NCBI GenBank assembly: GCA_013115135.1
Contig: JABANP010000331.1
Coordinates: forward strand, 1 to 57,523
Origin: Perkinsus olseni
Taxonomy: Eukaryota > Perkinsozoa > Perkinsida > Perkinsidae
Length of the DNA: 57,523 bases
Direction: 5' to 3'
Both the position numbers and the translations under genes were made by a program. Under the pieces are notes generated by a model. That model was not told where the DNA came from and did not search any database. It saw only the letters and a list, made by a program, of their open reading frames with translations. Positions 8,400 through 30,395 of the stretch are shown here, in pieces (position 1 is the stretch's first letter; each line of letters starts with the position of its first letter).

Positions 8400-8420
8400 T
8401 CTTAACCGTTAAGACTTAAC
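8400..8420 (+). repeat. Palindromic triplet, A = tcttaac
   Basis: Perfect A-n-A'-A(2-7) structure. The right duplicated block has a different triplet five bases further along the homologous site (28183). Without both insertions the two blocks have equal length here. Confidence 0.95.
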
Positions 8421-9456
8421 GAGGGTTACACTTGCTCCTGGGGGGAGCCGCTATGGAGTGGTCGAACCCGTAGTTGCGTCGCTGGCACGAAGAAGAAGGT
8501 GATCATCATGAATGCTATACATTGTATAGAACTGTGAGAATTCCGCTTCAAGTGCACTGATATCTGTGTAGGATTGTTGTTGCATGTGTGCACATCATCA
8601 GCTATGTTTGCGTATGAGACTCGTTCAGGGTATGCCCCATAGCGACAGCATAGTGCCGACTATAGTGTACGCTATGTAACAGGCACAGCCTGGTTCGACA
8701 TGCTCCAGTCCCGTTCTGACACTGTTTGAGCTGCTCTCAAATAGCTACACTGTACTGAGTTATAGTGCAGGCATGTCATCCAGCTATCACCCTGCATGCA
8801 CTGTCGCAAGCACTGTAAGTGTCGCATGCACGCGATCACGGAGATATATTCAAACAGTCGCAGGTTCATTCGCATATTCGCTGTCGATTCGGCGGCGTAC
8901 CGCACTGCTGCCAAACAAGTGACCCCTACAGCTCTCTGGCACTCTGCTGGATTCCGTCAGGGTCGGGCAGACCATGACGCCTAAGAGTGAGCACTGGTGG
9001 AAGAAGCGCCTGTCAAGGCTGCCTGTGACACCCCGCTCTTACTGCGTTATAGTCGCTGAGTCATGATCAGTGATTATTCTAGTGATGACATCTTGCTACG
9101 ACGGTATAGAATACTGAGTTTTCCCCCGTGAGGGAGTTGGATGCCTCCGGTGGATCTTTCTTTCGATGCGTGACCCTCCCGTGATCGGGTGAGAGCCGGC
9201 GGCCGTACCCTGCTCAGAACCGACGTCACGGTACCAGTCTTCAAGGTGTACGTAAGGTGTTCAAGGGGGACGGTGGTCTTGGGTCTCATGCGAGTCAGAC
9301 GCCGTAGAGAGAATTGAGATGGGCGCTCCGCACCGCGGATTCCGAAAATCGCCGTTACTCGAGTACTGTGCGTCTGTGCTGTTCGAACAAGGCCTTGTCA
9401 CACCATCACCCGTAACATGACTAACGCAAAACGGAATGCAAAGATCAGATAGGTCC

Positions 9457-9477
9457 CGAGCTGAGCTCGGCGAGCTC
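9457..9477 (-). repeat. Palindromic triplet, A = gagctcg
   Basis: Perfect on the minus strand. Exactly 14 nt longer than the paralogous site near 29310. Confidence 0.95.
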
Positions 9478-9698
9478 ATATACCGTTGCAGATACTCCTC
9501 CGCGAAGGGGTGATCAGAAAAAACGGATAATGATCTGCTGCTCTAATCGAATCCTTATATGAAAAATGTGACCCTCTATATCGAGTAACGGGTCATAGCG
9601 TGGTTCTACTATAGCAAAAGACTCTACCGGGTGGAGTACACCCCTGCCATCTGAGACAAATCGCATTCCGAAGGGTGGACAACAGAAGCTTTGCTCAC

Positions 9699-9874
9699 CT
9701 ATGGACAGTTGCATCTGAGACCCTCACAGTGGCAGTTTGTGATGCAACCGAGGCACACCAGAGGTCCTAGGTTTGGGCCTCCACTGGGTGCTGCGTCAAC
9801 GGTGGGGTTAGACTAACCCGGTTAGTGTCGGTGAAGGTGAGTATGGCGCACGCGAGGCAGAGGAGCTAATTCAT
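9699..9874 (-). pseudogene. Secreted cysteine-rich peptide pseudogene (left block)
   Basis: Reading from the ATG at 9874, the third codon is TAG where the related copies have TAC (MNYLLCLACAIL...). A 14-nt palindromic insertion (9805-9825) then shifts the frame. Downstream the ancestral frame is still readable and ends with the cysteine signature VCLGCITNCHCEGLRCNCP before TAG. It is a dead copy of a ~55-residue secreted peptide: signal peptide, short Pro/Gly linker, then CxxC-x3-CxC-x4-CxC. Its 5' half is mirrored at 10.6-11.05 kb, where it feeds the S10 gene. Confidence 0.75.
9805..9825 (+). repeat. Palindromic triplet, A = gggttag
   Basis: Perfect. Absent from the mirrored arm near 11025 (agggttagtgtc), a 14-nt difference. 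Confidence 0.95.
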
Positions 9875-10027
9875 ATCGAAAAGGAGTTTGAGACGGGGGC
9901 TGATACCTCAAAAGAGAGAAGTCGGTTGAGAAAGAGGGCAGGCTAGAGTTAAGGCATCGAAGTAACGCGTCATCCGTAAGTAGCCGTTAAGAGCCTAGTC
10001 TAGTAGGTCACTAGTAGGAGACTGCGA

Positions 10028-10048
10028 CGCCCATCATGGGCGGCCCAT
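10028..10048 (+). repeat. Palindromic triplet, A = cgcccat
   Basis: Perfect. The mirrored arm near 10795 has only one copy of the word, a 14-nt difference. Confidence 0.95.
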
Positions 10049-10809
10049 GATGGTCACGTACCACGTTACACATAGACTTCCACGTAAGTGCGACACCATC
10101 GGCCTTCACTGTGTCCGTGACATATACTGTGTCAACAGTAAGGAAGGCGAAGGCGTCATGTCAGCACCCTGTGGGTGCTCCAAGTACTACCTGTCCCCGT
10201 AGCCAGCATAAGAACCTTGGGTTCTGGATCCTATACAGCGGCGCCAACCTGGCAAAGTAACGTGCCCGCTCCGCGGCGGCATTGAAGGCGTTTAGTCTGG
10301 TGAATACGATAAACATATCGGTATCCAAATGATTGAGCCTCAATCACGTATCAACACTCATGAAATATACAAAGTTGAACGCAAGCAGTAGACAGCGCCA
10401 TAGCATTCCACGTAGCGAGCAGTAACCGACACTCAACAACATAGTAACCCCCGCGGGAAACCGGCCCCAAGCCTCGGAAGAACGGTCAGACATCTTAGCC
10501 TCGGGTCTCGGGGGGAATTTAGTCATATGTTTGGGTGTCAGAGACCCGGACCCGGTGCTCCTCGCATACGCGTACGTCGTACGCACGCGGACGAATGGAG
10601 CGGCATTAACAGACCTTTTCATGGTGACTCAAGTGATGACGCCTTCGCCTTCCTACTGAACCTCAGTTGCTACACTAGCAGCATTGTTCGAGCATCACAT
10701 TCACCGTTGACGCGGTATATGTCACGGACACAGTGAAGGCCGATGGTCTCGCACTTACGTGCAAGTCTATGTGCAACGTGGTACGTGACTACCATGGGCG
10801 CCACAGTCT

Positions 10810-10830
10810 CCTCCGGACCGGAGGCTCCGG
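10810..10830 (+). repeat. Palindromic triplet, A = cctccgg
   Basis: Perfect. The mirrored left arm near 10018 lacks it; that arm also lacks a few neighbouring bases. Confidence 0.9.
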
Positions 10831-10976
10831 TTATCACTAGTGACCTACTAGACTAGGCTCTTAACGGCTCCTTACGGATGTCGCGTTACTTCGATGCCTT
10901 AACTCTAGCCTGCCGCCTTTCTCAACCGACTTATCTTCTTTGAGGTATCAGCCCCCGTCTCAACCCCCTCGTCAAT

Positions 10977-13285
10977 ATGAATTACCTCCTCTGCCTCGCC
11001 TGCGCCATCCTCACCTTCACTGACACTAACCCTACCGTTGACGCGGCACCTTATGAAGGTTCAAACCTGAGATCAGCGGTCCTTCTCGTTGAATTATTAT
11101 TAGCAGCAGCGGGGGACGCCTTTATCGGATATGAAGGTGGTATGTAGCCCAAGTGCCGGCAAGCCTCCTCGGGTGATCAATCAGGTGGGAAGAAGCTCAG
11201 AAGACTTGATGGGGTTCTATGTGAACCCTCAAAGGGCACACAAGAATTCGGTTATACCACCATCTCGGAAAACAAGAAGTACATATTTGTTGGTAGATGC
11301 TTGAGAGAAGCCTGTGTGTCCGTCAGATATTTCCATGCTCTCATAAACGCAGAGGAGAGCTCCCCGAATACGCCGACTTTCGTCTACTTGCCCGGAGGCC
11401 CTGGAGTCAGCGCCCTTGGAGCAACTCTGACCCTCATCGGGCCCTGCATCGTTGAAGCGGATGACCTCACTCTGAGTCTCAACAAGTGCTGCAGGTACGA
11501 CACCAGTGGAATCATGTTTCTTCCTTCCCAGGTTCGCATGGACCCGAAAGGCGAATGGCATTTTCATGGACGCCCCCGGAGAGACCGGGTTCAGTATAGG
11601 CTCGACTGAGGCAAGCATGAGAGAATACGTCGACAACTTGTACGGCTCTGATGAGAATGACGATTGTTGAATCGTAGAGTACTACCCAGATATAAGACTC
11701 TTCTGGAGGTCATTTCGAAGGCGCCACATCTGCGGGAGAACCTCCACTTGGTTGGGACCTCATTCGATGGTACGATACTGTTTTTGCGGCTTGTTGCCCG
11801 AGAGCACGCATGACTAGGTCAGACTCTGATCGTCAGGGATGGCTCCGTGCTGTTGGGTCAGAATCCGAGTGTTGATTTTGGACTGTAACCTCCATAGGTT
11901 CAACGGCAACCCTACTCGCTCAAAAGATTATATCGTTCAAGTCACAATCGGGAATAAAATTGAGAAGTCTCATAATTCTGGATGGGTTCATGAGTCCTGT
12001 CGATATGTACGAGCGTGACAATTCGAGAGAACTGGAGGTCTTGCCTTTATTCCGGTGACTTCAGGTACAGAGGTGCTGTCGAGATGGCGAGAAAAAGAAA
12101 TCTTCTGCCGCAGAAGACGTGAGCAGCACAACTGTAACCTATAGTCTACCTGTCTTATACGCGCTTCGCTTCAGTATCGCCAAGATGGTTACGGATGGTG
12201 ATACATGCTTTGAGAAGGTGAAAGCATGCCAGCCGACTGGAAGCCACCCCGATCCTGACCCAAGTAGCTATGAGCATGACACCTACCGAACCCTTTGTCG
12301 TCATCCGTGACTGCAAGGTGCATGTCAAGAAGCGGCGAATTTCTGTCGTGATTCTCTGCTTGACCCACTCAAGGCGGCTAGCATCAGCCAGTGAGAGATT
12401 GTACAGTACAGTCAGTGTACTCGCATGCCGCATTGCGGAGACTGTATAGCATCTTCCGTTCGAGCCTCTGGTTCTTTAGATATGATGTACGTACTGCGCC
12501 CGGGCTGGAGCACAAATATTATAAACTTATAACCGGCACCGTGAGTCCCGGATTCAGAGTGGCCATTGCCCGATAAGTACAACAATCTTCCACCGATGTC
12601 AGGCCGAGACCCATATGAACGACAAGACCGTGCAAGCGGCAATGGGAGTGAGTAAACAATGGTTCAGCTTTGATGGGCAGGTGTGACTCAGTCGTAGTGG
12701 CTGCTGCCTTGCGGCCTTTCATGATGTCAGGTATTCCAGGACTTCCACAAGTTTGTGGCCTATGACACCAAAAAAGCTGTGCCTAGTCTTCTGGACCAAG
12801 GTTTGAAGGTGACTTTGATGTTGCGATGTGGCATGGCTTACGTCCTCGACTCAACTCTTTCACTAATCACTACCCTCAGGTTGTAGTCTTCAATGGTGAT
12901 CAAGATTTCGTGACCAACTCATTCGGTGCTCTGTACTGGCTGAGTGGTTTGAAGGGAAGCGTTGACTACGGTGAGCAAATAGCTGCCGCGAAGGACACGC
13001 CTCTCAAAGTAAGAAACATGACATCGACCGAAGCTGCCGATCTGACAATGCAGCTCGAATTCACTTCAGTTTAAGGAGGGAGGAAGTTTGGGAACGATTA
13101 GGGCGGTCAAATACACCACAGGTGGATACTTAGCGTTCATCAGAGTGAGACAGGGGGGAGGCTAAATACACTAAGTACGCGTGTTCTGCGAGGTACCTGA
13201 TGGGAGTCACAGACCGGTTCTCAACAAGCCTTTGGAAATGCAGCAGGCTTTCGAGGCCGTATTGAGTGGAGCTATCGGGGCATAA
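10977..13285 (+). CDS. S10 serine carboxypeptidase-like protein, chimeric signal peptide
   Basis: Exons are separated by short GT-AG introns; the clearest are 45 nt (donor GTATGT), 48 nt (donor GTACAT), 37 nt and 38 nt. Spliced, the protein shows S10 hallmarks in order: FGYTTISEN-K-KYFHALINAEE, VYLPGGPGVSA (oxyanion loop), FAWTRKANGIFMDAPGETG, nucleophile Ser in LHLVGTSFDGS, LDGFMSPVDMY, VQAAMGVSKQWF, catalytic Asp in VVVFNGDQDFVTN, and His in DGSHRPVLNKPLEMQQAF. The triad is complete. Asn of WLNGGPG is Pro, and Glu of GESYG is Thr. In yeast carboxypeptidase Y these residues bind the substrate carboxylate, so activity may differ from a classical carboxypeptidase. The first exon is borrowed from the cysteine-rich peptide family (MNYLLCLACAIL). 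The former start codon has become CTG at the NLRSAVLLV junction. Confidence 0.85.
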
Positions 13286-14010
13286 AGATGAATGAAGATT
13301 TCCCGTTCATAGTCGGTATCGTAGTGTCCAATAGACACTCTCCAGCCAGGCAATTCATAACTGATGTCGCATCAGATCATATGCCGCTCTAATATCTCAT
13401 ATGTCATATCATATGTCTCTATCATATAGCGATAATAACGCTCATTATGTCTTTCTCACTATCGGTGATAGCCTCTCGCGGGCACGCGACTTTTGCTCGG
13501 GCCGAGCCATGGCCGTTGTTCTCATTCGTAAGTTTTCTCATAATTTCTCGTTCGTCTGACCAGTCCAGCCTTCTGAGCCGTAGTAGGCTCCGTAACCACA
13601 CACTTTATGTCATGTCGTAGTAGGCAGAGCCGATTAGGATATGCTATAGCTGTAGCTATAGCAATCTTACCCATCTTTAAGCCCCGTCTCAAATGGCCAC
13701 ACTGTACTGAGTTATAGTGCATACTAGTTACCTACTAGATTAGGCTCCTGACGGCCTGCAGCATGGGAGAAATTGGGGCTCACAACACTGTCGCACAACG
13801 GACAGCGTGGCTCACACGGTCGGGGACAGTCGACTCCAACGGTGCTCCTTAACTGAGTTAAGTTTAAGTTAACTCTTGGATCTTATTGTTTCCCCTCACA
13901 TACGCCGTGCTTTCGGTGGTTTCGGCCGCACAAGGTGTTTGTGCGGATGTCTGCCCATTTGTAGCGTATTACTTACAATCCGTTAATTGATCGATGGCAG
14001 AATGGCTGGA
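13286..14010. other. Spacer with CATATG-rich stretch and dispersed repeat
   Basis: No gene is supported. Around 13376-13433 there is a run of CATATG/ATCATAT words. Near 13700 the sequence ctgtactgagttatagtgca also occurs at 8750, and it is followed by tagttacctactagatta, which resembles the palindrome arms at 10.0/10.85 kb. Confidence 0.4.
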
Positions 14011-14566
14011 TAATCCCGGCTCTTCGTCCGCGACCTTGCGTAACATACAATGGGAAAAGAGCTCAAGTCGCGAATCGATCAGCCGGGGAGGAGACACTCC
14101 TACCAGGCACACCGCCCCGCACGCATACACACGATTACTTCGGGCGGTCCGCCCGATCGACACCCGGGTGGATCCGGGATCGACACTAGGACATCTCCGG
14201 ATTCACGGTTCCGAGTCACGTCACGACGACCCGTGCACTGTACACCCTCCGCGCCTGGCAAACACTACCCTAGTAGGGTTACCCTACCCTTCTGCCGCAT
14301 TGGCTGCACCGACACATATCCGGCACTGCCCGGTCTGCTTTCCCGCTATCTTCGTGCGGACCAAGGGTTGACCGGGCTCTGTTTCCTCAAGTCTCTTGGG
14401 TTCGTCCTTCGCGCAGTTCGCATGGACCTTGGGTTTGCAGCTTTGCAAGTCCACGCTGTGCCTACCCCAGAGTTGGTCCCTGTGCGTTCCGCAGTGTGGA
14501 CAGCGCAGGTTTCCGCGATGGGCTGTTCGCTCGCTTCGAGTACCTGCGGCAGTCACTGCACACCGC

Positions 14567-14587
14567 GTCGGTCGGACCGACTCGGTC
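14567..14587 (+). repeat. Palindromic triplet, A = gtcggtc
   Basis: Perfect structure inside the GC-rich candidate element. Confidence 0.9.
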
Positions 14588-14985
14588 CTTTCCGCGCTAC
14601 CCCAGTCCGTTGCCCGGCACTGGTTCGGATCGCCTGACGCAATTGGCCTGGCCATGTTGGCCCCACTGCACCTTGCACGGGTCAGGGCTCCCAGCTTAGG
14701 GATGACTCACTGCTCTGCACCATGGCACCTGGGTGGACGGACTTCATCCTGTGCATGATGGCGTCCTGCTCAATGGAAGCTTCCACTGATAGTGTCCTGC
14801 TCTTGCAGACTAGCGGAACGGCTTACTCATTCGCTCTCAGCCCTCAGAGCCAGAGGTAGGCTCCCGCTGGGTTCCCGCCCGCCCGCGAGTCGCGAAGGCG
14901 GTCGAGGAGGTGAACTCCTGGAGTAACTCCAGGCTCCGCTGCACTGTTCAGCCACCGCGGCTACTCTGTCGTTTGTAGCGCCTGC

Positions 14986-15006
14986 GCGGACTGAGTCCGC
15001 CGGACT
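14986..15006 (+). repeat. Palindromic triplet, A = gcggact
   Basis: Perfect structure inside the GC-rich candidate element. Confidence 0.9.
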
Positions 15007-15274
15007 CATTCTCTCGTTACGTGACGCTAGTTGCGTCATGAGCTTCGGTGTCGTTATCTCCAGTGGCGATTCGCGACCATTTGTGTGTCCACTTTATACG
15101 CGTGATTTGTGACAACTCCTTTGTCTCATACCACAGACTGTGGTCCACAGCCACCAGCTCTTGTGTCACACAGTTCGTGGAGCTACGTGCCCGTTCACGT
15201 CGTTTTGAGTCGTCTACTTCGCTCATGGTTTTTGTCCTCCACTCTGGTGACGCTTCCCGCGTAGACTCCGTTTC

Positions 15275-15295
15275 GTGCTCAGTGAGCACTGCTCA
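15275..15295 (+). repeat. Palindromic triplet, A = gtgctca
   Basis: Perfect structure inside the GC-rich candidate element. Confidence 0.9.
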
Positions 15296-16489
15296 CCCGA
15301 CGGTACAGGGCGGGCAGATTACCGCTTGTGGGTACTGCACTGCCGCTACCCGAGCAGCCACCATTCTGCGGCGCAGGATCTGCGCTGCCGGTGCACCAAC
15401 CCGGCATGTAGTTCATCGAGCATCAGGTGTTGCTCGGAGTCCGAGCCTCAGACGTGTCCGGGTTCTGCTTCCTTCTCTCTACAACCTTCCGGCGGCTGGT
15501 GTCGCTTCCCACGGGGAAGTTTCTCCTACCCTCTTCTCCGGCCACTGACTCGTGCTGCTTCGGTAGTAGGCACGGCCTTCACGAGGCCTTCCCGGAGATT
15601 CTTCCTCGGTGGGTGTCGGGGTTGTACTAGCACCTCGCGCATACGGCCTCCCGAGTCGGGAGGCTGGTCGGGAGTCCCGCCTATGCTACAGTTCCGAAGC
15701 GGAACTTCCGCTTCTCGGCGCGACATTTGCATCAACGCGCAACCTCACCAGTGACTGACTGGAGCCCCCAGTCAGTGTCTCCTCCAGTCTGGGGGCGACC
15801 TTGATCCATCGCATTCCTGTGTATCCAGCAGCTTCGACACAGCTATGATTCACCTCCGCCTCAGGCGGCGGGGTTGCCCCATTCGGTTAGTTTGGCCGCT
15901 AAACCGGCACGAGTCCTGCAACGTAGTGGCCCTACCCTGTAGGACCTACAGCAGGTGTGCTTCACCCCGTATGGAACTCGCGACGACGGGATTTCCATCA
16001 TTCGCAGCATTTTCTGCGCATGCAGTGCTGAACCAGACCACATTATGTTTTTTTTGGCCGGAGCTCCGGGGCGTACCACAGTGTCTTCAATTTGGTCACG
16101 TCCCGTCATGTTCGTCCCCGTTCTATGTGCTTTCATGCACACGATTGGGCAGCTGAGCTCGGTCTCGACTCGATCGTAACGTTGTTCGCCCGGCAGAAGT
16201 GCCTTCTCCCCGGCTGTTCGATTCGCGACACGAGCTCTCTTCCCATGGGTGGCGCGGCGGCTTCGAGTCCCTTCACCGTTGCTATTAGCATAGGGCTACT
16301 CGTGTTGATCTCATACCCCGGCAGCTCATGCGCCTTCTTCACCCCATCAAGTACGTCTTAGCGGTCCCAGCGTTTCCTATGCTAGTAATCCAGTCCTGCA
16401 TCTCCTGAAGAGCTCAAGTCGCGAATCGATCAGCCGGGGAGGAGACACTCCTACCAGGCGACCCCCCCATTGAGGGAGGGACGGGTGGG

Positions 16490-16650
16490 TCAAAAACATC
16501 GACAGGACACCCGGCACTACCGTGCCAGACGCTGACCTCTCACGATGAACGGCTCGGTGACGTACACCGCCCCGCACGCATACACACGATTGTCTCCAGC
16601 GGCGGACTACCGTGGATTTTCCTTCGACACACGGAGTGCATCGATTACTA
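16490..16650. repeat. ~160-bp direct repeat, copy 1
   Basis: Starts ggtcaaaaacatcgacagg and is nearly identical to 18285-18445, same orientation. Part of it (accgccccgcacgcatacac) also occurs at 14110. Confidence 0.9.
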
Positions 16651-16979
16651 AAATCCCGGCTCTTCGTCCGCGACCTTGCGTAACATACAATGGGAAAAGA
16701 GCTCAAGTCGCGAATCGATCAGCCGGGGAGGAGACACTCCTACCAGGCGACCCCCATCCGATGGAAAAAAAAGGTTGTGTTCCATCGTGCACCCGTGAAG
16801 CACTGAACCGGCGGGCCTGTCGCTACAGGTGGTGGTCAGCTGGGAAGTTGCAGGAGAAGTTCTCCTGGACAACAGACTATAACACGGCGCCAAGGAAGTT
16901 CCCACAACGCGCAGAGAGTGTTGGCACAACACTGGGAAAGTTGGGATCTGGCGAGTCACAGAGACCCGTAGCATGAGAT

Positions 16980-17000
16980 ACGGCGCCGCCGTGACGGCGG
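16980..17000 (-). repeat. Palindromic triplet, A = ccgccgt
   Basis: Perfect on the minus strand, at the left edge of the ~193-bp tandem repeat. Confidence 0.9.
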
Positions 17001-17400
17001 TCCAAGCCTCGAGGTAGTCGAGTCGAGTACAGACGGAGGCGCCAAGAAACAAGCAGCGAGGAGGAGAGCACGGATCGTGCACGAGGGGGAGGGAAGTCAG
17101 AGTGGCGCGTGAACGTGACAGCGGGCCACTGGCAAAGCACGAGGGAGCGGGGTAGTGTGCAAGGCACGACCCCTAGGCAAGGCGCAAGGAGCGGTCCCAG
17201 CCTCGAGTACGGGCGGAGGCGCCAGGGATCCTGGCCCAGGGGACACGCGCCGGGGAGAGGAGCACGGAGCGCGCACGAGAACGAGGGGAGCCAGAGGGGC
17301 ACGTGAGCGTGACAGCGTACCACTGGCAAGGCACGAGGGGGAGAGGAAGTGTGCAAGGCACGACCCCTGGGCAAGGCGCAAGGAGTGACGGGGGCAGTGG
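17000..17400. repeat. ~193-bp imperfect tandem repeat, two units
   Basis: The unit beginning ggtccaagcctcgag at 17000 recurs at 17193 (ggtcccagcctcgag). Both contain the cggaggcgcca, gcacg...gcacga and gtgacagcg...ccactggcaa blocks. GC-rich, no coding evidence. Confidence 0.75.
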
Positions 17401-17990
17401 AGCAAGGCGAGACTCAGCCGCAAAGGGAGTCGCAGGCCCAGCTCGGCGCGTTGTAGAAACCGTCTAGGACGCCCTTTCTACGAGAAAGGGAGCAGAAAGT
17501 CTACAGCGCACCCGACAACAGAGTGTCCGACACCAACTCGGCAGGTGAAGAAGGTGTCAGCCGCCTCGTCGGACGTGAACGGCGTAGTCGGGCGGTTGTG
17601 GGAATACGTTGCCGTGAACCACATCGCGATGCATGTCTCCCCGAGTAGCCTCAGAAGCAAAACCCAGCGGACAAGCCGTCCCGAGGCAAAGCTGGGGGAG
17701 ACACACTGGGAATTAGTGGCGTGTGTACCCCCGCCGGGGGTCCCCGGCGGTCGTACATCCGTGACGCCTAGAGAAAGAGAGAACCCGCGGGGGTCCCCCC
17801 GGGGGGAAGAGAGCGCACGTGGGCCCCAGGAAGTGGGAGACAAGCACAGTTTCGTAACGCCTGTGTGTTGAGTCAAGTGGTAACCCGGGGGTAAAGTGCT
17901 GCACGGGTGCGTGCATGGGAGCCACAGTGGCTCAGCCACTGGCGGGAGGCGGGTAGCACGGCAGGAGGGAGGCAGAGTGTGCCAAAGGGG

Positions 17991-18210
17991 AGCGTGAGAG
18001 TCCCGAGAGCCGTGAGAGACGGCAGGTGAGGGAGAGCCCAATAGGAGCGTGAGAGTCCCGAGAGCCGTGAGAGACGGCAGGTGAGGGAGAGCCCAATGGG
18101 AGCGTGAGAGTCCCGAGAGCCGTGAGAGACGGCAGGTGAGGGAGAGCCCAATGGGAGCGTGAGAGTCCCGAGAGCCGTGAGAGACGGCAGGTGAGGGGGA
18201 GCCCCAAGGA
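17991..18210. repeat. 55-bp tandem repeat, four units
   Basis: Units start at 17991, 18046, 18101 and 18156, each beginning agcgtgagagtcccgagagc. The first three are nearly identical and the fourth diverges at its end. The period is not a multiple of three. Confidence 0.95.
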
Positions 18211-18284
18211 GGAGAGGGCGGCGGAGCAAGGTGAACTCAACCTGGCGGGAGCTGCAAACCGAGCTCGTGTCCGGAGCGACGTAG

Positions 18285-18445
18285 GTCAAAAACATCGACA
18301 GGACACCCGGCACTACCGTGCCAGACGCTGACCTCTCACGATGAACGGCTCGGTGACGTACACCGCCCCGCACGCATACACACGATTGTCTCCTGCGGCG
18401 GACTACCGTGGATTTTCCTCCGACACACGGAGTTTATCGATTACT
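18285..18445. repeat. ~160-bp direct repeat, copy 2
   Basis: Second copy of the 16490-16650 repeat, 1.8 kb away in the same orientation, just right of the 55-bp tandem array. Confidence 0.9.
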
Positions 18446-19122
18446 ATAACTCAGAAATGAGTGAGATTCCGGGGAGTTCTTTCCTTCTTGGTTTCATCAG
18501 AGTGAGGTTTGATCGTGGTAGCAAGTTGTAAACATCTTCTGACGATTAACTCATCATCTAGCGGCGCTAACTGTTAGCTACCAGCATTGGGTTGTTCACC
18601 AGTGGTGATTGGCTTGAGCAAGAAGACGCTAAAGAGATCATTAGATGGTTGACTACGGCGAACCATGCTGAAAGCTGCTTCGCACAGGCTGACTTCTCTG
18701 CGGTCCTGGTTTTCCCTGACCCATCATTCGTCGACGAGCGAATGAGGTTATTCGACGATCTGGCAGCCAGATTCTGACTTGCGCCGTCACGGCGCCGCCG
18801 TGCTACAAGGACGCCCGGTTAACGCTAAGTACTCCGCTTGAACGGGTGCCCTGGCTGCCGTGCCATCTACTTTCCCGGGTACACCTGAGTCCGAGGGAGC
18901 TAAACGATGACTCCGCTTCTCAGTATTATTTTAACGTTTTTACTGTAACTGTAAGCTTCCGTCTCTAAGGGAAGGGGGATGTAGTTGTGCAAGTGCACAA
19001 CTATGGAACCTAAGCTTAGCCGACGCTAGTGGATGATCCTATAACTGTAGTTCAAGTATGAAAGATAGAATCTAAGGATTCAACTAAACCATTGGCTTGA
19101 GTTTACCGATGGTTAACACCAG
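18446..19122. other. Spacer, no supported gene
   Basis: A short open frame at 18592-18777 shows no motif. A perfect palindromic triplet lies at 18782 and a long hairpin (tagttgtgca...tgcacaacta) near 18985. Confidence 0.4.
18782..18802 (-). repeat. Palindromic triplet, A = cacggcg
   Basis: Perfect on the minus strand. Confidence 0.9.
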
Positions 19123-19322
19123 CGTACCTCCCACCACTCCTCGACCTCCGCGCCAAGCCACACCTCGTGGCAGCTCCGGGCTGCACCACTGACCTGCGGG
19201 CTGCCATCAGCTAGGCGACGCGCTGTGACCATCCTCAGACTCCTTAAAAGGATTCTGAGTTGCGACCGACAGTTCTCGGGTGAGTGCTGCAACTTGCGCT
19301 ACCGACTTGCAATGAGGGTCCG

Positions 19323-19343
19323 CTTTGGGCCAAAGCCTTTGGC
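19323..19343 (-). repeat. Palindromic triplet in TOG copy, A = gccaaag
   Basis: Perfect on the minus strand. Exactly 14 nt longer than the site near 5053 in the other TOG copy. Confidence 0.95.
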
Positions 19344-20201
19344 TGCCAGGTATACAACATTAAGTGCCGAGGAGAGGCACTTCCTATGCGTCTCCCTCTC
19401 AATGAGGTAGCTCAGGCTGGCCCCGAACTCCTCACTGATACTCTTCCCGCAGATATTATCATTGACAAGAGCCGACTTGAGGCTGGCGAGGGCTTCCATG
19501 CGGACGCTCCACTGCTCGCTGAGGAGCAGCTCTTCCACTATGTACAACGGAGAACCTATTCCATGTAATCGCCATCAGTTGAACGCCAGTAAGCCTCACC
19601 TAGCACATCGCCGATGGGCCTTTTCGAGCCGAGTACTGAAGGAGGTTTCCGGTCAGTACTCAAAGGCTTGCTTCTCCTCCTCTCACCAACAGGGATTTGT
19701 CTCGGCTGACGTGATTCAATAGGACCTGTGCTAGGCTTCGAACTATCGGCAACAACTACTGATATATCCAATCGGACACCGCCGCCTGGGAGGTCCTCGG
19801 GAGAACCATCGACCCGTACGATAGGAGGGATAGCAGGCTCGTACCTTCGGCTGTATGCAAGGTCTTCTCTCAGAGGTTCGCCACCGTAACCACACAGGCA
19901 TCGAGCCAGTTCCTCTTCAACCCGTTGAAACTGCGGGCATCCGAGGAGATCCTCGCGGCACCACAGAAGGATCGGCCCGAGGACTCTTTCCTGGGTACTT
20001 CAAAGCGCACGGGCTGAAGTTGACCATTAGGGGAATTAAGGCGTCCACGCCTCGCTCGATGAAGAGCCGACCCCAAGCTGAAATTGGTCTTTCCACTTCG
20101 ATGATGACCAAAGCCAAAACCGCAAGGGGACCGTCCAGGCCTCTCTTCATCGCTACGGTTATGGAGGATGCTGGTGAGCATTGAGCCACACTTGACATCA
20201 G

Positions 20202-20222
20202 ATACATTATGTATCATACATA
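20202..20222 (-). repeat. Palindromic triplet in TOG copy, A = tatgtat
   Basis: Perfect on the minus strand. 14 nt longer than the site near 5912 in the other TOG copy; shifts the frame. Confidence 0.95.
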
Positions 20223-20272
20223 CGCGCGGATGAGCTGCGGTAGGATAATATCGAATGCCGTATCCTCCAGCC

Positions 20273-20293
20273 AAGTAGACTACTTGAAGTAGT
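20273..20293 (-). repeat. Palindromic triplet in TOG copy, A = actactt
   Basis: Perfect on the minus strand. Brings an in-frame stop relative to the site near 5975; here the net length difference is 9 nt because of a nearby 5-nt change. Confidence 0.95.
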
Positions 20294-20629: not shown

Positions 20630-20650
20630 GCTGACAGTGTCAGCCTGACA
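20630..20650 (+). repeat. Palindromic triplet, A = gctgaca
   Basis: Perfect, just upstream of the TOG pseudogene start. Confidence 0.9.
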
Positions 20651-21113
20651 CAATGAAAATTTCATCTTTCTGTTCGAAATTTTCAAAAATTTTCGAACAT
20701 ATAACAGAATCTATTTTTCTGCTCAAATGCGGAAAGCGCGCGCCCGAAGAAAAAAATTGAAAAAGTGGCTGTTTGGGGTATTTTCATGAATTTTCTCTGC
20801 CACCGTATTGCGGTCTGAGTTAGACCGTCTAACCGACAACTCATTAGTCACTAATGTACGGCGGAACTCCCAGCTATATCTTTAGCCTCGATGCCATGGC
20901 TTTTTCCAGTAATATTCTGTTCGTGCTTAAATGATTTCCCGAAGACTTCAAATGTTACAAATGTGTGCCAAATCATGTGTCTGACAGCTAAGATGTGAGT
21001 TCCGAGAGCTTGATAGGTTGAAGTTCATACTTGAAGATAGTCCGCTCCCCAAGACCGAGATCCAAAACCCCTAGCGCTTGTTGAATGTTGTTGCAAAGAC
21101 GATTTGCGATACG

Positions 21114-21134
21114 ATCACAGACTGTGATTCACAG
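21114..21134 (+). repeat. Palindromic triplet, A = atcacag
   Basis: Perfect structure in spacer DNA. Confidence 0.9.
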
Positions 21135-21458
21135 TATCACCGTGCACTGTGTAGATTCCGGGTGTCAGTGCTTGCGCTCAAGTCAAACAGAGTTGGGACC
21201 CGAACAACAAGGCCTGCACCTTTCGTCCAGATTCTGCACTACGAAGAAAATTCGTGAAAAACAACGGCTGCCGCGGTCTAGGTCGTGAGATATGGGATAC
21301 TCACGTCGTGCATTTCACGGCATGAATTTCCTGTTGATAAACCTGATAATTATCTCGGAGACAAGGCCATACGTTGCTGTAATATTCTGTGTTCATGCGT
21401 AGCTAGCTTGTTGCGCGACGAGCATGATACTGTACGGCTTGTGCAGATGGACGGTCAC

Positions 21459-21479
21459 CTACCGGCGGTAGGCTACCGC
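21459..21479 (-). repeat. Palindromic triplet, A = gcggtag
   Basis: Perfect on the minus strand, in spacer DNA. Confidence 0.9.
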
Positions 21480-22260: not shown

Positions 22261-22281
22261 GACAGACTCTGTCTGACAGAG
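22261..22281 (-). repeat. Palindromic triplet, A = ctctgtc
   Basis: Perfect on the minus strand, just past the 3' end of the minus-strand S10 gene. Confidence 0.9.
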
Positions 22282-22330
22282 TCCACTGAAGACTACGATC
22301 CTGACTCTGAGCAGATGCTCTTCGCCCACC

Positions 22331-25141
22331 TTATGGCCAAAAAGCTTCACTCAATACGGCCTCGATAGCCTGATGCATTTCCAAAGGCTTGTTAAGAACC
22401 GCCGTGTGGCTCCCATCAGTCACCTATCTCAACGCACGTAATTTGCTATCAGTAGGCTACGATTGTTATCGCAAAAAGCGACTCAGTTGCCCCCCTTTCT
22501 CACGTTAATGAAGGCTAAGGATCCACCTGTGGCGTATTTCACCGATCTAATCGTTCCTAAACACCCTCCTTTCTTAAACTGAAGAAGATGTGCATTTTGG
22601 ATCGCTCTAACCAGCTGCGGTCGATGTCATCTCTTCTACCTCGAGAGGCTTGTCCTTCGCAACAGCTAGTTGGGCACCGTAATCAACCGTTCCTCTCAAA
22701 CTGCCCAACCAGTAGAGAGCACCGATCGAGTTGGTTACGAAAGCTTGGTCGCCATTGAAGACTATAACCTAAGGGTAGTCAATACTGGGTAGTGGGGAAG
22801 TAGGCAGGGTGAACCACTGTCCAGATTTGGACATTGTCCATCTGCAACTTTGCCGCAATTTGCGGCAAGAAAAATAATAGGCGAAAAATAGGAAAAATAC
22901 GAAAAATGCCAAAAAAAGCCTAAAATTTGAGCCTCGAGCGTACACAAGTGGGCCGAGTGCCTACAGGTCATCACCTTCGCCCGTAAGCGTGATTGACAGT
23001 TGTATCAACGACGGTAATACCGCTGCACACTTGTTTCCCTCACGGCAAGCCTTGCGATGCGAACCGATGCAAATTGCCATCGATCAGGTGGGCGCGCGCC
23101 AAGTTCATGCGCTGCTTGACGAGTGCGATGCGTTGCATATGGTTCGGAAGTTGTTTATGCGGGACACGGGTGCTCGTGATGCCCCGCGATAAGCGTAGCG
23201 TTGCCTGCTCCTTCCATGATCACCTGCATCGCACTAGTAGCACTCGGATCGTCTCGGTCGCCTCGGCAGAGGCGACAGGAAAAATTTTCGTATTTTACGG
23301 CTATTTTGCGCATTTTGCGAGTATTTTGCGCAAATTTCTTGCGGAAAAATATTTTTTTATTTTGCAGGACATTGGTGCACCCTGGAAGTAGGCGAGTCAA
23401 GGACACGGCAACATCAGAGAAGTGATTCCTTTCGAATTTGTCACTTGTAAAGCATCGTCAAGAAGGGTAGACACAACTTTTGTGGTGTCGAAAGCCTGAA
23501 ACTTGTGGAAGTCCCCAAATACCTGACACCATCAGGGCCTCAGCGAAGGTCTGCAAGCCAGTCATGTACGAACTCACCTGGCTATTGCTGCTGAGCCATT
23601 TTTTACTCACTCCCATAGCCGCTTGCACGGCCTTATCGTTCATATGTATCTCGGCCTGACATAGGTGAAACACCATTGTACTTTATCGGCAATGGGCAAA
23701 GGCCACTCTGAATTCGGGGCTCACGTTGCCGGTTATAAGCTTATAATTCTTCCACTCCAGTCCAGGGCGGACACGTACATCATATCTGAATCGGACGCTA
23801 TGGATGTGATACAGCGAACTAGTCCCTGCATTGCAGCCTGCGAGTACACTCAGCAGAGATAGTTTCTCACCGGCTGATGCCAGCGGCATCGAGGGGGTCC
23901 AGCAGAGAATCACCACAGAAGTTTGCCGCGTCTTCACATGCACCTTGCGGTCATGGATGACAACTAAGAGTTCCGTATGATCAGGTGCCTCATGGCTACT
24001 TGGGTCGGGATCGGGGCGGCTCGCTGTCGGCTGGCATGCTTTCACCTTCTCAGCGCATGTATAACCATCCGTAACCATCTTGGCGATACTGAAGCAGAGC
24101 GCGTATGAGGCAGGCAGACTATGAGGTAGAGTTCCGCTGCTCACGTCTTCTGCGGCAGAAGTTTTCTATTTCTAGCCATCTCCACACCACCTCTGTACCT
24201 GAGGTCACCGGTACAAAGGCAACATCATTCGTGCCGAAATGTGACTCTCGTACATATCGACAAGTCCCAGGTTCCCATCCAAGACTATGAGACTTCTCAA
24301 TTTTATTCCGGATTGTGCCTTGAGCGATATAATTTTGTGAGCGAGTAGGGTTGCCGTTGAACCTATGAAGTCTACAGTCCAGAATCAGCACTCAGTCAGA
24401 GCAAGTCACGCTTGCTCTCAAGGAAGCCACCAAAACAGCATCGTACCGTCGAATGATGCCCCAACCAAGTGGAGGTTCTCTCTCAGACTCGGCGCCGTCG
24501 AGATGACCTCCAGAAGAGTTCTATATCTGGATAATCTAGGAATCAACAATCGTCATTCTCATCAGAGCCGTACAAGTTGTCGACGTATTCTCTCATGCTT
24601 GTCTCAGTCGAGCCTATACTGAACCCGGTCTCTCCGGGGGCGTCTATGAAAATGCCATTCGCCTTTCGGGTCCATGCGAACCTGAGAAGGAAGAAACATG
24701 ATTCCACTGGTATCGTACCTGCAGCACTTGTTGAGACTCAGAGTGAGGTCATCCGCTTCAACGATGCAGGGCCCGATGAGGGTCAGAGTTGCTCCAAGGG
24801 CGCTGACTCCAGGGCCTCCGGGCAAGTAGACGAAAGCCGGCGTGTTCGGGGAGCTCTCCTCTGCGTTTATGAGAGCATGGAAATATCTGACGGACACGCA
24901 GGCTCCTCTCAAGCAATCTCCCAACAAATATGCACTTCTTGTTTTCCGAGATGGTGGTATAACCGAATGCTTGTGTGCCCTTGGAGGGTTCACATAGAAC
25001 CCCACCGAGATTCCTGACCTTCTTCCCACCTGATTGGTTACCCAAAATAGCTTGCCTGCACTCAGGCTACTTACCACCTTCATATCCGAGAGCGGCATCC
25101 GCTGACACTAGTAATTGAACGAGAAGGACCGCTGATCTCAT
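22331..25141 (-). CDS. S10 serine carboxypeptidase-like protein, catalytic Asp replaced
   Basis: Paralog of the plus-strand S10 gene with matching exon order and small introns. It starts at the ATG complementary to 25139-25141 with its own signal peptide (MRSAVLLVQLLVSADA). Spliced landmarks: GYTTISENKKYFHALINAEE, VYLPGGPGVSA, LHLVGASFDGSTATLLAHKI (nucleophile Ser kept), LIVLDGNLGLVDMY, YALCFSIAKMVTDGYTC, MNDKAVQAAMGVSKKW, VIFNGDQAFVTN, and DGSHTAVLNKPLEM with the His. The catalytic Asp of GDxD is Ala (gct; the paralog has gat). The protein is therefore probably inactive as a peptidase, or acts as a binding protein. Two introns or spacers (22.82-22.95 and 23.27-23.40 kb) are enlarged by AT-rich gaaaatttt-type blocks. 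Later exon joins are approximate. Confidence 0.8.
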
Positions 25142-25427: not shown

Positions 25428-25565
25428 TAGGCTGTAGCTAGGCACTGTGTCTATTTAGGCTAAGTCACTCTGTGTGCATCAGTGTGAGCCTAGCTTCCCT
25501 ACTTACTATGCGGTGTGAGAACCTGAGAATGGCTATCCTCACACAATTCATTGTGGTCGCGCTGT
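25428..25565. repeat. ~140-bp dispersed direct repeat, copy 1
   Basis: Matches 27893-28035 in the same orientation (shared ggctaagtcactctgtgtgc). This copy lacks the 14-nt palindromic insertion present at 27996 in the other copy. Confidence 0.85.
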
Positions 25566-27145: not shown

Positions 27146-27166
27146 TGACACGCCGTGTCAGACACG
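27146..27166 (+). repeat. Palindromic triplet, A = tgacacg
   Basis: Perfect structure in spacer DNA, 255 nt past the 3' end of the cysteine-rich peptide gene. Confidence 0.9.
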
Positions 27167-27420
27167 GCAAACACAACCCTGAGTTGATCTCGTCCACTCG
27201 CCAGGCGGAGGGAAAACCGAATGGAACTCCACTGATGAGTCGGAAAGTACTGAGAGTTGAGGATGTTCCATCAGCTGGTCGAATGCTACGGAATACTCGA
27301 CGACCCTCTGTAGGCGATCGACGGGCCGTACTAGGGTCACGCTCGCATGCCTCGCCCCGTGCCCTGAGGAAGGCCTTTCCTGGTTTTATGGAATCCATTA
27401 CACACACCATTCTTGCTTAC

Positions 27421-27600
27421 CTATTCGCAGACACACGAGTATCCGTAGATGCCAGCGTTTACACAGTGGCAATAATGTGGTGGCTCACACTTGGTACAGT
27501 CTCCGTATGACAATTTTCTCACCGGTCTATCCACTATCTCACCCTGCAGTATCGCAGCAATGGCAGGAATGATGCAGACTAGGAAGAATAGGTATTTCAT
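27421..27600 (-). CDS. Small secreted cysteine-rich peptide
   Basis: A single-exon frame of 59 residues starts at the ATG complementary to 27598-27600 and ends at TAG (27421-27423). The N-terminus MKYLFFLVCIIPAIAA is a clear signal peptide. After a short linker the C-terminal 25 residues hold six cysteines in the pattern CTKC-x5-CHC-x8-CVC plus a final Glu. The same CxxC...CxC plan is seen at 9.7, 29.6 and 54.5 kb in this window. I do not recognise the family. The pattern suggests a disulfide-stabilised extracellular peptide; effector, antimicrobial or wall roles are open. Confidence 0.7.
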   Translation of the reverse strand: MKYLFFLVCIIPAIAAILQGEIVDRPVRKLSYGDCTKCEPPHYCHCVNAGIYGYSCVCE

Positions 27601-27995
27601 GTGACTGTTTGCTAAAGCTGAGGAGTAGCACTTGGCCCAATCATCGCTCAGCGACATGCTATCCACAATGGTGTGGACTGAAGGTGAGTCTTAGGCATCA
27701 AAACCATAAGAACCTCCTCAAGAGACGAATATCTTCTCATGGGGCTCGGAGTCAGAATCTCTGATGAGAACCTCCCTCGACTCAAGCTCGGATGCCTCCT
27801 CAACGTAACCCCACGCCCCGAATACGCGTGTACCTAGCCCAGCTCGCTATGTGCGCGTACCGGCGGTACGCGCCGTAGGGTGTTATGGGCTGTAGTTAGG
27901 CCTTGTGTCCCTTTAGGCTAAGTCACTCTGTGTGCACCAGTGTGAGCCTAGCTTCCTTACTATTCGGTGTGAGAGCCTGAGAATGGCTATCTTTA

Positions 27996-28016
27996 CCCCA
28001 TTCAATGGGGCCCATT
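27996..28016 (+). repeat. Palindromic triplet, A = ccccatt
   Basis: Perfect. Exactly 14 nt longer than the paralogous dispersed repeat near 25533. Confidence 0.95.
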
Positions 28017-28108
28017 GATTGTAGTTGCGCTGTGTGGCCATTAGCTCTGCTCTCTACACAGTTGCACGCATACGTTGAGGGGCTTTCTGCGCCCTGAAGA
28101 AGCCTTTG

Positions 28109-28129
28109 GTTGGGGTCCCCAACTTGGGG
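28109..28129 (+). repeat. Palindromic triplet, A = gttgggg
   Basis: Perfect structure in the right duplicated block. Confidence 0.9.
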
Positions 28130-28182
28130 AGAGTCAATAGAGGCACGCAACAACGGTCCCTCGACGTACTCGTCGGCATATT

Positions 28183-28203
28183 CACGAGGTCCTCGTGACG
28201 AGG
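28183..28203 (+). repeat. Palindromic triplet, A = cacgagg
   Basis: Perfect. Lies at the site homologous to 8400 but derived from a word five bases further along. Confidence 0.95.
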
Positions 28204-29525
28204 ATTGCGCTTGATCCGGGGAGGAGCCGCCACAGACTCTGTAGGACAGAGTGGTAGAGGCCGTGGTATCACCAATGGCACGAAGGTGATCATCATGTGT
28301 ACTGTACACTGCACACTGTATAGCAATGTGAGACTGGCGCTCTAAGCTCAGCGACATTCTTAATGCACGCGTGTACATCGTTAGCTATGCTTGCATATGG
28401 AGCTCGTTCAGGGGATACCATCTGTGTTACGCTCCGCCTAATAGGCGGATAGGCGGCGCCTATCTTTATGCGTGCAGATTAGTCTGAGAATTAGCTATCC
28501 TCCATAAGATTCATCTCGCAAGCTCCCTTCCCTCCCTTTGTGTTCAACGTAGGAGTATGAAAAGTACAAATATCTGTGCTCACTGTTGCACGCATGCGAT
28601 CGCGAAGGTATTTTAAAACAGTCACAGGTTCATGACCGTCGAATCGGCTGATGATTGTGAGCTTTTCCGTACTGGTTGGTGACTTTATTGAGCTCTACTG
28701 AATTGGTCTTTCATGAAACTGATTTGCCTTGAGCTTCCACTGGTTTTGGTCTTGGCTTTATCAAATGGCTTTGAGTTTTTACTAACTTGGTCTGGGCTTC
28801 ATTAAATTGCCCTGGGGTTCTACTGAGTAGGTTTGGAAATGATGTAGTCGCTGAATGGTGACCAATGATCGCTATTGTGGTGACACCTCGATAGGACAGT
28901 CACGAGAAACATCCCCGTAGAGGAAATTAATTGGCTGCCTATTTTGGTCCCTCCACGAAACAGCGGTGTGAGTGGGTCTGCGATATCCCGCGAGACCCTC
29001 CTATCGTCAGGTGAGAGCCTGTGACCCGTGCCCTTCTCGAGGCATCATCATGGCCCCATTAGAGCATACCACCATTAGAGCAGGAAGACGTGATAATTGA
29101 GTCATGTATTGCTCGTTATCAAGGACAGTTTCAATCTGATGAAGGCCCCAGTCTTCACGTCCCTCGGAAGTTTAATACGAGCGCGACAGAAGTTTCCGAG
29201 AACCGCTGTTTTTCGGCTTCTGTGCGTCTGTCGTGTTTAAACAAAGCCTCGCCACACCATCACCTGTGAGATGACTAATGAAGACGGAACGCAAAGATGA
29301 AATGGAGACCGAGCTCATATACTGTTGTAGATACTCGTCCGTAAACGAGTGAGCAGAAAAAACGGATGACAATTTGCTGCTCGAATAGCGTCCTTATAAA
29401 AAATATGTGACTCTGTTATATTGGTTGAGAGGCCATAGTGTGGTTACACTCCACTAGGGGACTGCACCCCTGCCATCTGAGATAAATCGTATCCGACAGG
29501 GTGGGCAAGAGAAACCCTTGCTTAC

Positions 29526-29701
29526 CTATGGACAGTTGCATCTGAGACCTTCACAATGACCGTCTGTGATGCAACCGTGGCACAACGAAGGTCCTAGGTT
29601 TGAGCCTCCATCGGGTGCTCAGCACCCGGTGCTGCGTCAACGATGGGGGTAGTAGCGGTGAAGGTGAGGATAGCGCAGGCCAGGCAGAGGAGGTAATTCA
29701 T
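29526..29701 (-). pseudogene. Secreted cysteine-rich peptide gene broken by a 14-nt insertion
   Basis: The ATG complementary to 29699-29701 begins MNYLLCLACAILTFTATTP, a signal peptide, followed by VDAAP. A perfect palindromic triplet (29613-29633) then adds 14 nt relative to the left block. The frame runs into TAG soon after. Beyond the insertion the original frame still encodes a CHGC...HCEGLRCNC signature and ends with TAG at 29526. A minor allele or a recent break is possible, since little else is damaged. Confidence 0.75.
29613..29633 (+). repeat. Palindromic triplet, A = gggtgct
   Basis: Perfect. Exactly 14 nt longer than the left block near 9788; breaks the cysteine-rich peptide frame. 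Confidence 0.95.
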
Positions 29702-30031
29702 AGTAAAAAGGGAGGTTGAGACGGAGGCTGATACCTCAATGGAGTGAGGTCAGTTGAGAACGGAGATACCAAAATTTGGTCACCAAACTCACGCAAAAGG
29801 AACGACATCCGTAACGGAACGTTAAGAGCATCGTCGAGCAGATGGCTAGTAGTACCCGGGAGATACTGTGACGCCCGTAGTATTCACGTGCTACGTGGCA
29901 CGTAGATTTTGTTGAGGACGACAGGCAAAGGAGCAACGCCGGCCCGTCTGCCATTGCACCGGAGTGCTGGGCGTGCGAACACGCAAGCACCCAAACACTG
30001 GACTCGTCCAGCCTGGGAACCCTTGATGCCA

Positions 30032-30052
30032 GGCCTACGGTAGGCCGCCTAC
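30032..30052 (+). repeat. Palindromic triplet, A = ggcctac
   Basis: Perfect structure in spacer DNA. Confidence 0.9.
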
Positions 30053-30374
30053 CATGGCTCACCCGCAGACTCGGTTTAGGTTGAGGGTGGGAGGGTTGAA
30101 TTCCACCCGGGAAGGCAGCGGGCAGGTCACGCGGAATGTCGCAGACCCGCTCACGCCGACGTAGCATAGAAAAACTGAGAAGAGAGGCAGTTGGGAGGTG
30201 GTCCACGCGTCTCCGCAGGACCACTCCTCGCGACTGCCGTGCACAAATTACCACTCCAGAAATCGGTGATCGTAACGCAGCTAGAACTAGTATCATCATC
30301 GGAAACGACTAGCTTGAGTAGTGCAGGATTGTGTGACTACGTCCCCTGCCGCGACGGTTTCACCCTCAGTAAAG

Positions 30375-30395
30375 CCTGCGGGCCGCAGGCTGCGG
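30375..30395 (+). repeat. Palindromic triplet, A = cctgcgg
   Basis: Perfect structure, last of the dense cluster. Confidence 0.9.

What the first reader, a model, noticed from the sequence alone, without database searches (positions are those of the whole stretch)
8400..30395. A family of 14-nt insertions with the fixed architecture A-n-A'-A
26 places in the window fit one rule perfectly: a 7-nt word A, one free base, the reverse complement of A, then A without its first base (21 nt in all). 18 are read on the plus strand and 8 on the minus. The words differ every time, so there is no element consensus. Thirteen bases are constrained, so chance predicts about 0.002 such sites in 57.5 kb counting both orientations. 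Paralogous DNA in the window shows the plain 7-nt word without the extra 14 nt at 9457, 9805, 10028, 19323, 20202, 27996 and 29613 (perfect structures) and at 28231 (degenerate). About 14 further sites fit with one or two mismatches (14266, 14642, 15017, 15365, 15691, 15931, 17727, 20812, 26162, 28231, 28434, 29767, 29885, 54266), as expected for older events. The insert is thus made from its own target: two successive fold-backs of the nascent strand with 1-nt loops, or hairpin-end opening at a break. I know of no described element or mutational signature with this exact geometry.
Basis: seen in the sequence. Interest (0 to 1): 0.96.

Follow-up and report, generated by a model that had tools for sequence, protein, structure and literature searches.

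The report
Uniform 14-base hAT transposon excision scars
This stretch of what is likely the genome of the clam parasite Perkinsus olseni is peppered with 14-base inserts that are likely scars left when hAT-type jumping genes cut themselves out, and the repair likely pairs the same 8-base target sequence almost every time, so each scar has one fixed format and could be counted as a record of past jumps.

Summary
The window holds 26 exact copies of a stricter, strand-symmetric 22-nt form, x W y W' x' W y', which equals T (minus its last base) + reverse complement of T + T (minus its first base), where T is 8 bp. In 244,699 nt of this genome there are 87; one simulation gives 0. A scan with T free (4-12) and join length free (2-40) finds 115 T = 8 sites with an 8-nt join and 6 with longer arms running into the unique flanks, against 0.0 expected; a much smaller excess at T = 4 is unexplained. 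Paralogues show plain T without the 14 nt. The geometry fits hAT excision: 8-bp target duplication, flank hairpins with a 1-nt loop, opening of both beyond T, annealing through T. The genome has hAT transposase domains and hAT-like elements with 8-bp TSDs (one in this window), and their TSDs share the sequence bias of the scars' T. Not shown: a site with the element in one copy and the scar in another. Palindromic hAT footprints are known; one near-uniform +14 product at this density is a new variant. The fold-back replication reading is not supported.

The parts
3002..3023 (.). perfect scar, 22 nt (xWyW'x'Wy')
8400..8421 (.). perfect scar
9456..9477 (.). perfect scar; exact empty paralogue
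9805..9826 (.). perfect scar; exact empty paralogue
10028..10049 (.). perfect scar
10810..10831 (.). perfect scar
14567..14588 (.). perfect scar inside the multi-copy 4.4-kb element; also in copy C22
14986..15007 (.). perfect scar; 1 mismatch in copy C22
15275..15296 (.). perfect scar; also in copy C22
15648..15679 (.). long-arm scar (T = CTCCCGAC, 20-nt join); its last bases are missing because the window lacks about 290 nt that L071 has; complete in L071, empty in L072
17919..17940 (.). perfect scar
18781..18802 (.). perfect scar
19322..19343 (.). perfect scar; exact empty paralogue in window
20201..20222 (.). perfect scar; exact empty paralogue in window
20272..20293 (.). perfect scar
20630..20651 (.). 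perfect scar
21114..21135 (.). perfect scar
21458..21479 (.). perfect scar, also filled in L029
22797..22804 (+). left 8-bp TSD of a non-autonomous hAT-like element (GAAGTAGG)
22805..23384 (+). 580-bp non-autonomous hAT-like element, TIR CAGGGTG.ACCA; 11 near-full-length places in the genome (91-100%, this one included)
23385..23392 (+). right 8-bp TSD (GAAGTAGG)
27146..27167 (.). perfect scar; exact empty paralogues
27996..28017 (.). perfect scar; 10 empty places, 1 filled, 1 other spacing
28109..28130 (.). perfect scar; 1 exact empty place, 4 at other spacings
28183..28204 (.). perfect scar, filled in close paralogues
28434..28463 (.). long-arm scar (T = CCGCCTAT, 16-nt join, 22-nt insert); empty in L022
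   Evidence: (listed there under L023)
29613..29634 (.). perfect scar; exact empty paralogues
30032..30053 (.). perfect scar in a high-copy repeat; empty in L023; 14 of 29 other places spanning it are 14-18 nt shorter (net length only)
30375..30396 (.). perfect scar; exact empty paralogue
45310..45331 (.). perfect scar
55466..55487 (.). perfect scar

Best explanation
Each 14-nt insert is most likely the excision scar of a hAT-type DNA transposon, in which the two hairpin-capped flanks are likely opened beyond the 8-bp target duplication and rejoined by annealing of that duplication. Steps. (1) An element inserts and duplicates 8 bp, T = xWy' (shown for resident elements; inferred for scar sites). 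(2) On excision each flank is closed as a hairpin from a nick one base inside the flank, so the loop is one base, the complement of the base next to the element: left xW-y-W'x', right yW'-x-Wy' (inferred from scar anatomy and published hAT footprints). (3) Each hairpin is nicked or unwound at or beyond the far edge of T, leaving 3' strands carrying rc(T) on one side and T on the other (inferred). (4) These are complementary over 8 nt whatever the exact opening point; they anneal, surplus flank is trimmed, and ligation gives xW-rc(T)-Wy', always +14 (inferred; it would explain the fixed length). (5) In a minority the arms join at 0-5 nt of chance homology outside T, giving longer inserts (six long-arm structures seen). 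T must have been duplicated before the break, since both hairpins contain both of its strands (inference).
For: Free scan of 317,391 nt over T = 4-12 and joins 2-40: T = 8, join 8: 115 against 0.0 expected (5 simulations); T = 8, joins 16, 18, 18, 20, 28, 32: 6 against 0.0; at T = 6-7 and 9-12 no join longer than 8 and single sites at most for joins 6-8. L071 and L072 are identical at 415 of 415 aligned positions and differ only by three inserts: two canonical 14-nt scars (T = TCGGAGGA, CTCCTTCT) and one of 26 nt whose 20-nt join is fully explained by 10 nt of left-flank hairpin plus 12 nt of right-flank hairpin with T = CTCCCGAC. Inserts of 24 and 22 nt (L022, L023) obey the same rule and have empty paralogues at 2-3 mismatches in 38 nt. 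In paralogue alignments at 88% identity or more, 14 is the commonest insert length of 3 nt or more (20 of 67 holder positions), and 20 of 20 fit the structure (15 exactly, 4 with one mismatch, 1 with two). 21 Dimer_Tnp_hAT matches; one frame has DUF4371 plus Dimer_Tnp_hAT. Elements with hAT-like TIRs and 8-bp TSDs: window, L010 and L032 (3 of the 5 rows); family A 6 of 6 copies looked at (one at 7/8); 9 of a further 12 copies of families A and B (two of the nine share one TSD). The window and L010 elements are absent, with the TSD single, in paralogues. A position matrix from 116 scar T sequences scores 15 resident TSDs above control 8-mers from the same insertion loci (0.547 against -0.347, p = 0.0004). 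[quoted passage not shown]
Against: No place was found where one copy has a hAT element and another the scar at the same T (only part of the genome could be compared). Elements are few beside scars: two with TIR and TSD (window, L010) against 87 scars in the same 244,699 nt; repeated hopping would explain this but was not shown. 14 of 35 sites with a homologue show no exact empty copy, and 4 show another spacing. T = 4 also has an excess: 12 joins of 9 nt or more against 0.6 expected, and join 7 17 against 5.6; T = 5 has join 5 19 against 5.4. By position several T = 4 rows are sub-readings of T = 8 scars or one palindrome repeated in family A copies, but L010:5578 and L017:6390 are not and stay unexplained. 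3 of 12 element copies showed no TSD. In one plant study 11 of 17 Ds excisions at one site gave the same footprint, so uniformity at a site is not unheard of. The TSD comparison rests on 15 TSDs from three families (the 7/8 TSD was left out). hAT hairpin chemistry was not tested here.
Confidence: 0.85

Rival explanations
1. Template switching or fold-back replication (small inverted triplication): the nascent strand folds back twice with 1-nt loops and copies a 7-nt word; no transposon is involved.
For: The product is formally a DUP/INV/DUP. Small inverted triplications exist in rad27/FEN1 mutants (PMC13334657; abstract, section 2.4).
Against: Such events vary widely (duplication 7 bp to over 10 kb, spacers around 30 bp). 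Here T = 8 with both loops at 1 nt dominates, and long-arm scars copy unique left and right flank while keeping T = 8.
Confidence: 0.05
2. Scars of another element with 8-bp TSDs (Merlin, P, KDZ type) whose excision also makes flank hairpins.
For: Merlin has 8-9-bp TSDs and remnants in Perkinsus marinus (PMC8101967 passages).
Against: No match to the Merlin DDE domain in this genome at E 0.001. hAT is the only superfamily I recall with both an 8-bp TSD and flank hairpins offset by one base (hAT features). P and KDZ were not searched.
Confidence: 0.06
3. A domesticated or programmed hAT-like cutter removes elements during development, and the assembly shows the processed genome.
For: Two otherwise identical copies differ by three scars and no substitution; many scars, few elements.
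Against: Many-copy elements with TIRs and TSDs are present. Many scars are shared by paralogues at 97-100% identity and so are inherited. Window against C22: 20 substitutions, one scar in 2,276 aligned positions, so scars do not always dominate.
Confidence: 0.04
4. Chance, sequencing or assembly artefact.
For: None found.
Against: 87 against 0 in simulation; many scars are identical in separate repeat copies.
Confidence: 0.005

Closest known systems
Ac/Ds excision footprints in Candida albicans, yeast and Arabidopsis (PMC5873905, PMC1978519; passages read)
   Same: Palindromic additions from the flanks, centred on the complement of the base next to the element; hairpin opening; microhomology-guided joining.
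   Different: There 28 different footprints among 128 C. albicans revertants with additions of at most 3 nt, arms up to 20 nt in yeast, and in Arabidopsis 11 of 17 alike at one site; here one product (rc(T), using all 8 nt of the TSD) makes up 115 of 121 detected T = 8 structures with joins of 8 nt or more, at different sites.
Hermes and Kat1 hAT transposases (PMC10368747, PMC4763223; passages read)
   Same: Hairpin-capped breaks on the flanking DNA; Hermes makes 8-bp TSDs.
   Different: Biochemistry of other proteins. Hermes prefers nTnnnnAn; the scars here show a different, weak bias (C or G at the ends, few G at position 2).
mPing (Tourist/Harbinger) excision repaired through TSD microhomology (PMC4561436; passages read)
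   Same: The TSD supplies the microhomology for rejoining.
   Different: 3-bp TSD, staggered cuts, mostly precise repair; no inverted copy.
Small inverted triplications in FEN1/rad27 mutants (PMC13334657; abstract and section 2.4 read)
   Same: DUP/INV/DUP layout.
   Different: Median 148/160/148 bp, variable, with spacers; not fixed at T = 8.
V(D)J coding joints with P nucleotides (recalled)
   Same: Hairpin ends opened off-centre give palindromic additions.
   Different: RAG/Transib chemistry; no 8-bp TSD.

Membership tests
hAT excision footprint | Both sides carry an 8-bp target duplication | tested here: met
   T = 8 holds 121 structures with joins of 8 nt or more against 0.0 expected; a small T = 4 excess (12 joins of 9 nt or more against 0.6) is not explained.
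hAT excision footprint | 1-nt loop on each side, the complement of the base next to the element | tested here: met
   Built into the 22-nt rule that 87 sites meet; for W = 6 other loop sizes give 0 or 1 in the window, and the long-arm class shows the same loops.
hAT excision footprint | Added bases come from the flank hairpins, none from the element | tested here: met
   20-nt join of L071 explained fully by the two flanks.
hAT excision footprint | Mobile hAT elements and transposase genes in the same genome | tested here: met
   That the transposases are active was not tested.
hAT excision footprint | Scar T has the target bias of the resident elements | tested here: met
   p = 0.0004 with 15 TSDs.
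hAT excision footprint | Same site seen with element in one copy and scar in another | tested here: inconclusive
   None found in the part of the genome that could be compared.
hAT excision footprint | Hairpin formation by the transposase | not testable with these tools
   Needs biochemistry.
Template-switch / small inverted triplication | Variable arm and spacer lengths | tested here: not met
   T = 8 with 1-nt loops dominates.
Merlin element scar | Merlin/IS1595 DDE transposase in the genome | tested here: not met
   0 matches to PF12762 at E 0.001.

The most novel reading that the evidence does not exclude
In this alveolate hAT excision is resolved by one near-deterministic route: both flank hairpins are opened past the target duplication and annealed through all 8 nt of it. 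Every excision thereby writes the same machine-readable +14 mark (always a frameshift in coding DNA), and the marks, likely thousands per genome, are a countable fossil record of past jumps and the commonest longer insertion between young repeat copies.
Probability: 0.55. Interest if true: 0.75.

Novelty: new variant of a known kind. Interest (0 to 1): 0.62.

Why it matters
Transposon excision footprints are usually varied and hard to recognise without the parent allele. Here one exact rule finds them in raw sequence, so excisions could be counted, dated and mapped without pedigrees. The uniform product also isolates a repair question: which host factor opens transposon hairpins so far from the tip and joins them through the TSD. 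It offers a ready-made signature to look for in other genomes and in nuclease mutants of laboratory yeast.

Tried and rejected
A mobile 14-nt element was rejected: the words differ (T shows only a weak bias). Fold-back replication was rejected: T = 8 dominates and long arms copy the flanks. Merlin was searched: 0 matches. Classical short hAT footprints (T = 8, join 2-7) were looked for: 17 observed against 10.8 expected, so few if any; deletion-type or precise excisions would not be seen by this scan. A first attempt to explain every paralogue indel by the hairpin model was too strict because it demanded exact flanks and exact net length: 11 of 72 events explained (10 of the 21 with net length 14), 0 in the shuffled control; replaced. 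Same-site element/scar pairs: an element in L043 lies inside an older, 2-mismatch scar, which is nesting, not proof. Host repair genes: one weak Ku exon and one DRMBL (SNM1/Pso2/Artemis-type) match, no conclusion drawn. Pfam on 17 window frame queries (one frame sent twice) found only RNase H / reverse-transcriptase-like matches in one frame; Rfam found none at gathering threshold.

Sampling limits: 19 of the 20 stretches were chosen at repeat hits, so 61 perfect scars in 187 kb must not be scaled to the genome; the two C1 stretches chosen without a repeat hit have 0 and 2 in 10 kb each, the only basis for "likely thousands". Loci lying inside other loci (L001-L004, L006, L008, L040) were dropped before the counts. 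In one search, 7 of 116 sites lacked 80-nt flanks and were left out.
Full report
Observation. The 21-nt rule is met 27 times on the plus and 29 times on the minus reading. 26 sites meet it on both strands, i.e. the 22-nt form x W y W' x' W y' with W = 6. With T = xWy' (8 bp) this is T without its last base, the reverse complement of T, and T without its first base. In a grid of W lengths and gaps, W = 6 with gaps 1 and 1 stands out (31 in the window; every other gap pair 0 or 1). In 244,699 nt, T lengths 6-12 with offsets 0-3 give 87 for (8,1,1). The other large classes are (6,3,3) with 100, which constrains only 6 bases, and (9,3,1) and (9,1,3) with 22 and 16, which I read as chance extensions of (8,1,1) (that reading was not computed). 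One second-order Markov simulation gives no exact match, and 0 and 1 with one and two mismatches against 37 and 35 observed.

Where it lies. The window is contig C259 of a 61.5-Mb, 968-contig genome. A hAT reading frame from it is 96% identical over 75% of its length to a P. olseni protein whose longest contig has 15,660 bases; G000:C816, another contig with a hAT match, also has 15,660 bases. I infer that the genome is P. olseni. Scars occur on many contigs: 61 perfect ones in 16 of 20 further stretches, 19 of which were chosen at repeat hits.

Insertion, not deletion. In paralogue alignments of at least 88% identity, 14 nt is the commonest insert of 3 nt or more (20 of 67 holder positions) and 20 of 20 fit this structure (15 exactly). 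Of 109 unique perfect sites with 80-nt flanks, 35 have a homologue in the DNA held; 21 have an exact empty copy, 15 a filled one, 4 another spacing, these classes overlapping; 74 have none. The scar at 27996 is empty in 10 places, filled in 1 and at another spacing in 1. Around 30032, 14 of the 29 other listed places that span the site are 14-18 nt shorter than the window copy; this is net length only. So the insert is derived in most cases that can be judged.

Why hAT. (a) Size: a scan with T free from 4 to 12 and the join free from 2 to 40, requiring that the join be made of left-flank and right-flank hairpin sequence, finds T = 8 with join 8 in 115 places and T = 8 with joins of 16, 18, 18, 20, 28 and 32 in 6 places, against 0.0 expected. 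Against this, T = 4 has 12 joins of 9 nt or more where 0.6 are expected; by position part of these are sub-readings of T = 8 scars or one palindrome repeated in family A copies, but two are neither. (b) Loops: each side has a single unpaired base, the complement of the T base that would have touched the element, as in published Ac/Ds footprints (cleavage at the 5' flanking nucleotide). (c) Long arms: L071 and L072 are identical at 415 of 415 aligned positions except for three inserts; two are canonical, and the 26-nt one has a 20-nt join of which 10 nt are explained by the left flank and 12 by the right, overlapping by 2. Flank sequence beyond T is therefore copied, which a 7-nt fold-back cannot do. 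(d) Elements: 21 matches to the hAT dimerisation domain; elements with hAT-like TIRs and 8-bp TSDs in the window (22797-23392), L010 and L032; families A and B with clean ends, 11 and 8 near-full-length places at 91-100%; TSDs in 6 of 6 (one at 7/8) and 9 of 12 copies; empty single-TSD sites for the window and L010 elements. (e) Target bias: the weak bias of scar T predicts resident TSDs, p = 0.0004, n = 15.

Why always 14. If each hairpin is opened at T's far edge or anywhere beyond it, the left 3' strand begins with rc(T) and the right one with T. They anneal over 8 nt, the rest is trimmed, and the product does not depend on where the nick fell. A precise nuclease is not needed. This step is inferred. 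It predicts the minority of longer inserts when ends join elsewhere, as seen, and near absence of short joins, also seen (17 against 10.8 expected).

What is not shown. The T = 4 structures L010:5578 and L017:6390 remain unexplained. Window against copy C22 shows one 14-nt scar, two 1-nt indels and 20 substitutions over 2,276 aligned positions, so the 415-nt pair with three scars and no substitution is an extreme.

Literature. Searches for hAT footprints, P nucleotides, hairpins and TSD microhomology, template-switch inserts and Perkinsus transposons or footprints returned ranked lists of at most 20 papers each; among the listed titles and abstract openings I saw none describing a T-rc(T)-T footprint class or such scars in Perkinsus. 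Of seven papers I saw more than the listing: abstract and one section of PMC13334657, and passages of PMC5873905, PMC10368747, PMC4763223, PMC8101967, PMC4561436 and PMC1978519. Most subscription papers, including the yeast study of Yu et al. 2004, are not held, so an earlier example cannot be excluded.

Noticed in passing
window 14014-18445: A multi-copy element (its first part listed at 19 further places, 92-99% identical), absent from C407 and C410 with 4 bp overlap; strongly strand-asymmetric (AT skew -0.185 then +0.166), and its parts are ordered and oriented differently in other copies such as C79.
   Followed up: partly
L010:5578-5591 and L017:6390-6412: Long-arm palindrome pairs with 1-nt loops that imply a 4-bp rather than an 8-bp target duplication; perhaps another transposon class.
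   Followed up: no
G000:C290:189991-195702 and C823:140168-142073: Several tubulin genes in tandem, seemingly of two alternating types (alpha and beta by my reading), open through the matched parts.
   Followed up: no
window 36186-36827: 81-bp tandem repeat, 7.9 copies at 99%, inside long open frames on both strands.
   Followed up: no
window 456-1430: Open frame with an RNase H domain, likely part of a retrotransposon.
   Followed up: no
L043:900 and 1501-2079: In a tandem repeat, one copy has an old 2-mismatch scar and the neighbouring copy a hAT-like element inserted into that scar.
   Followed up: yes
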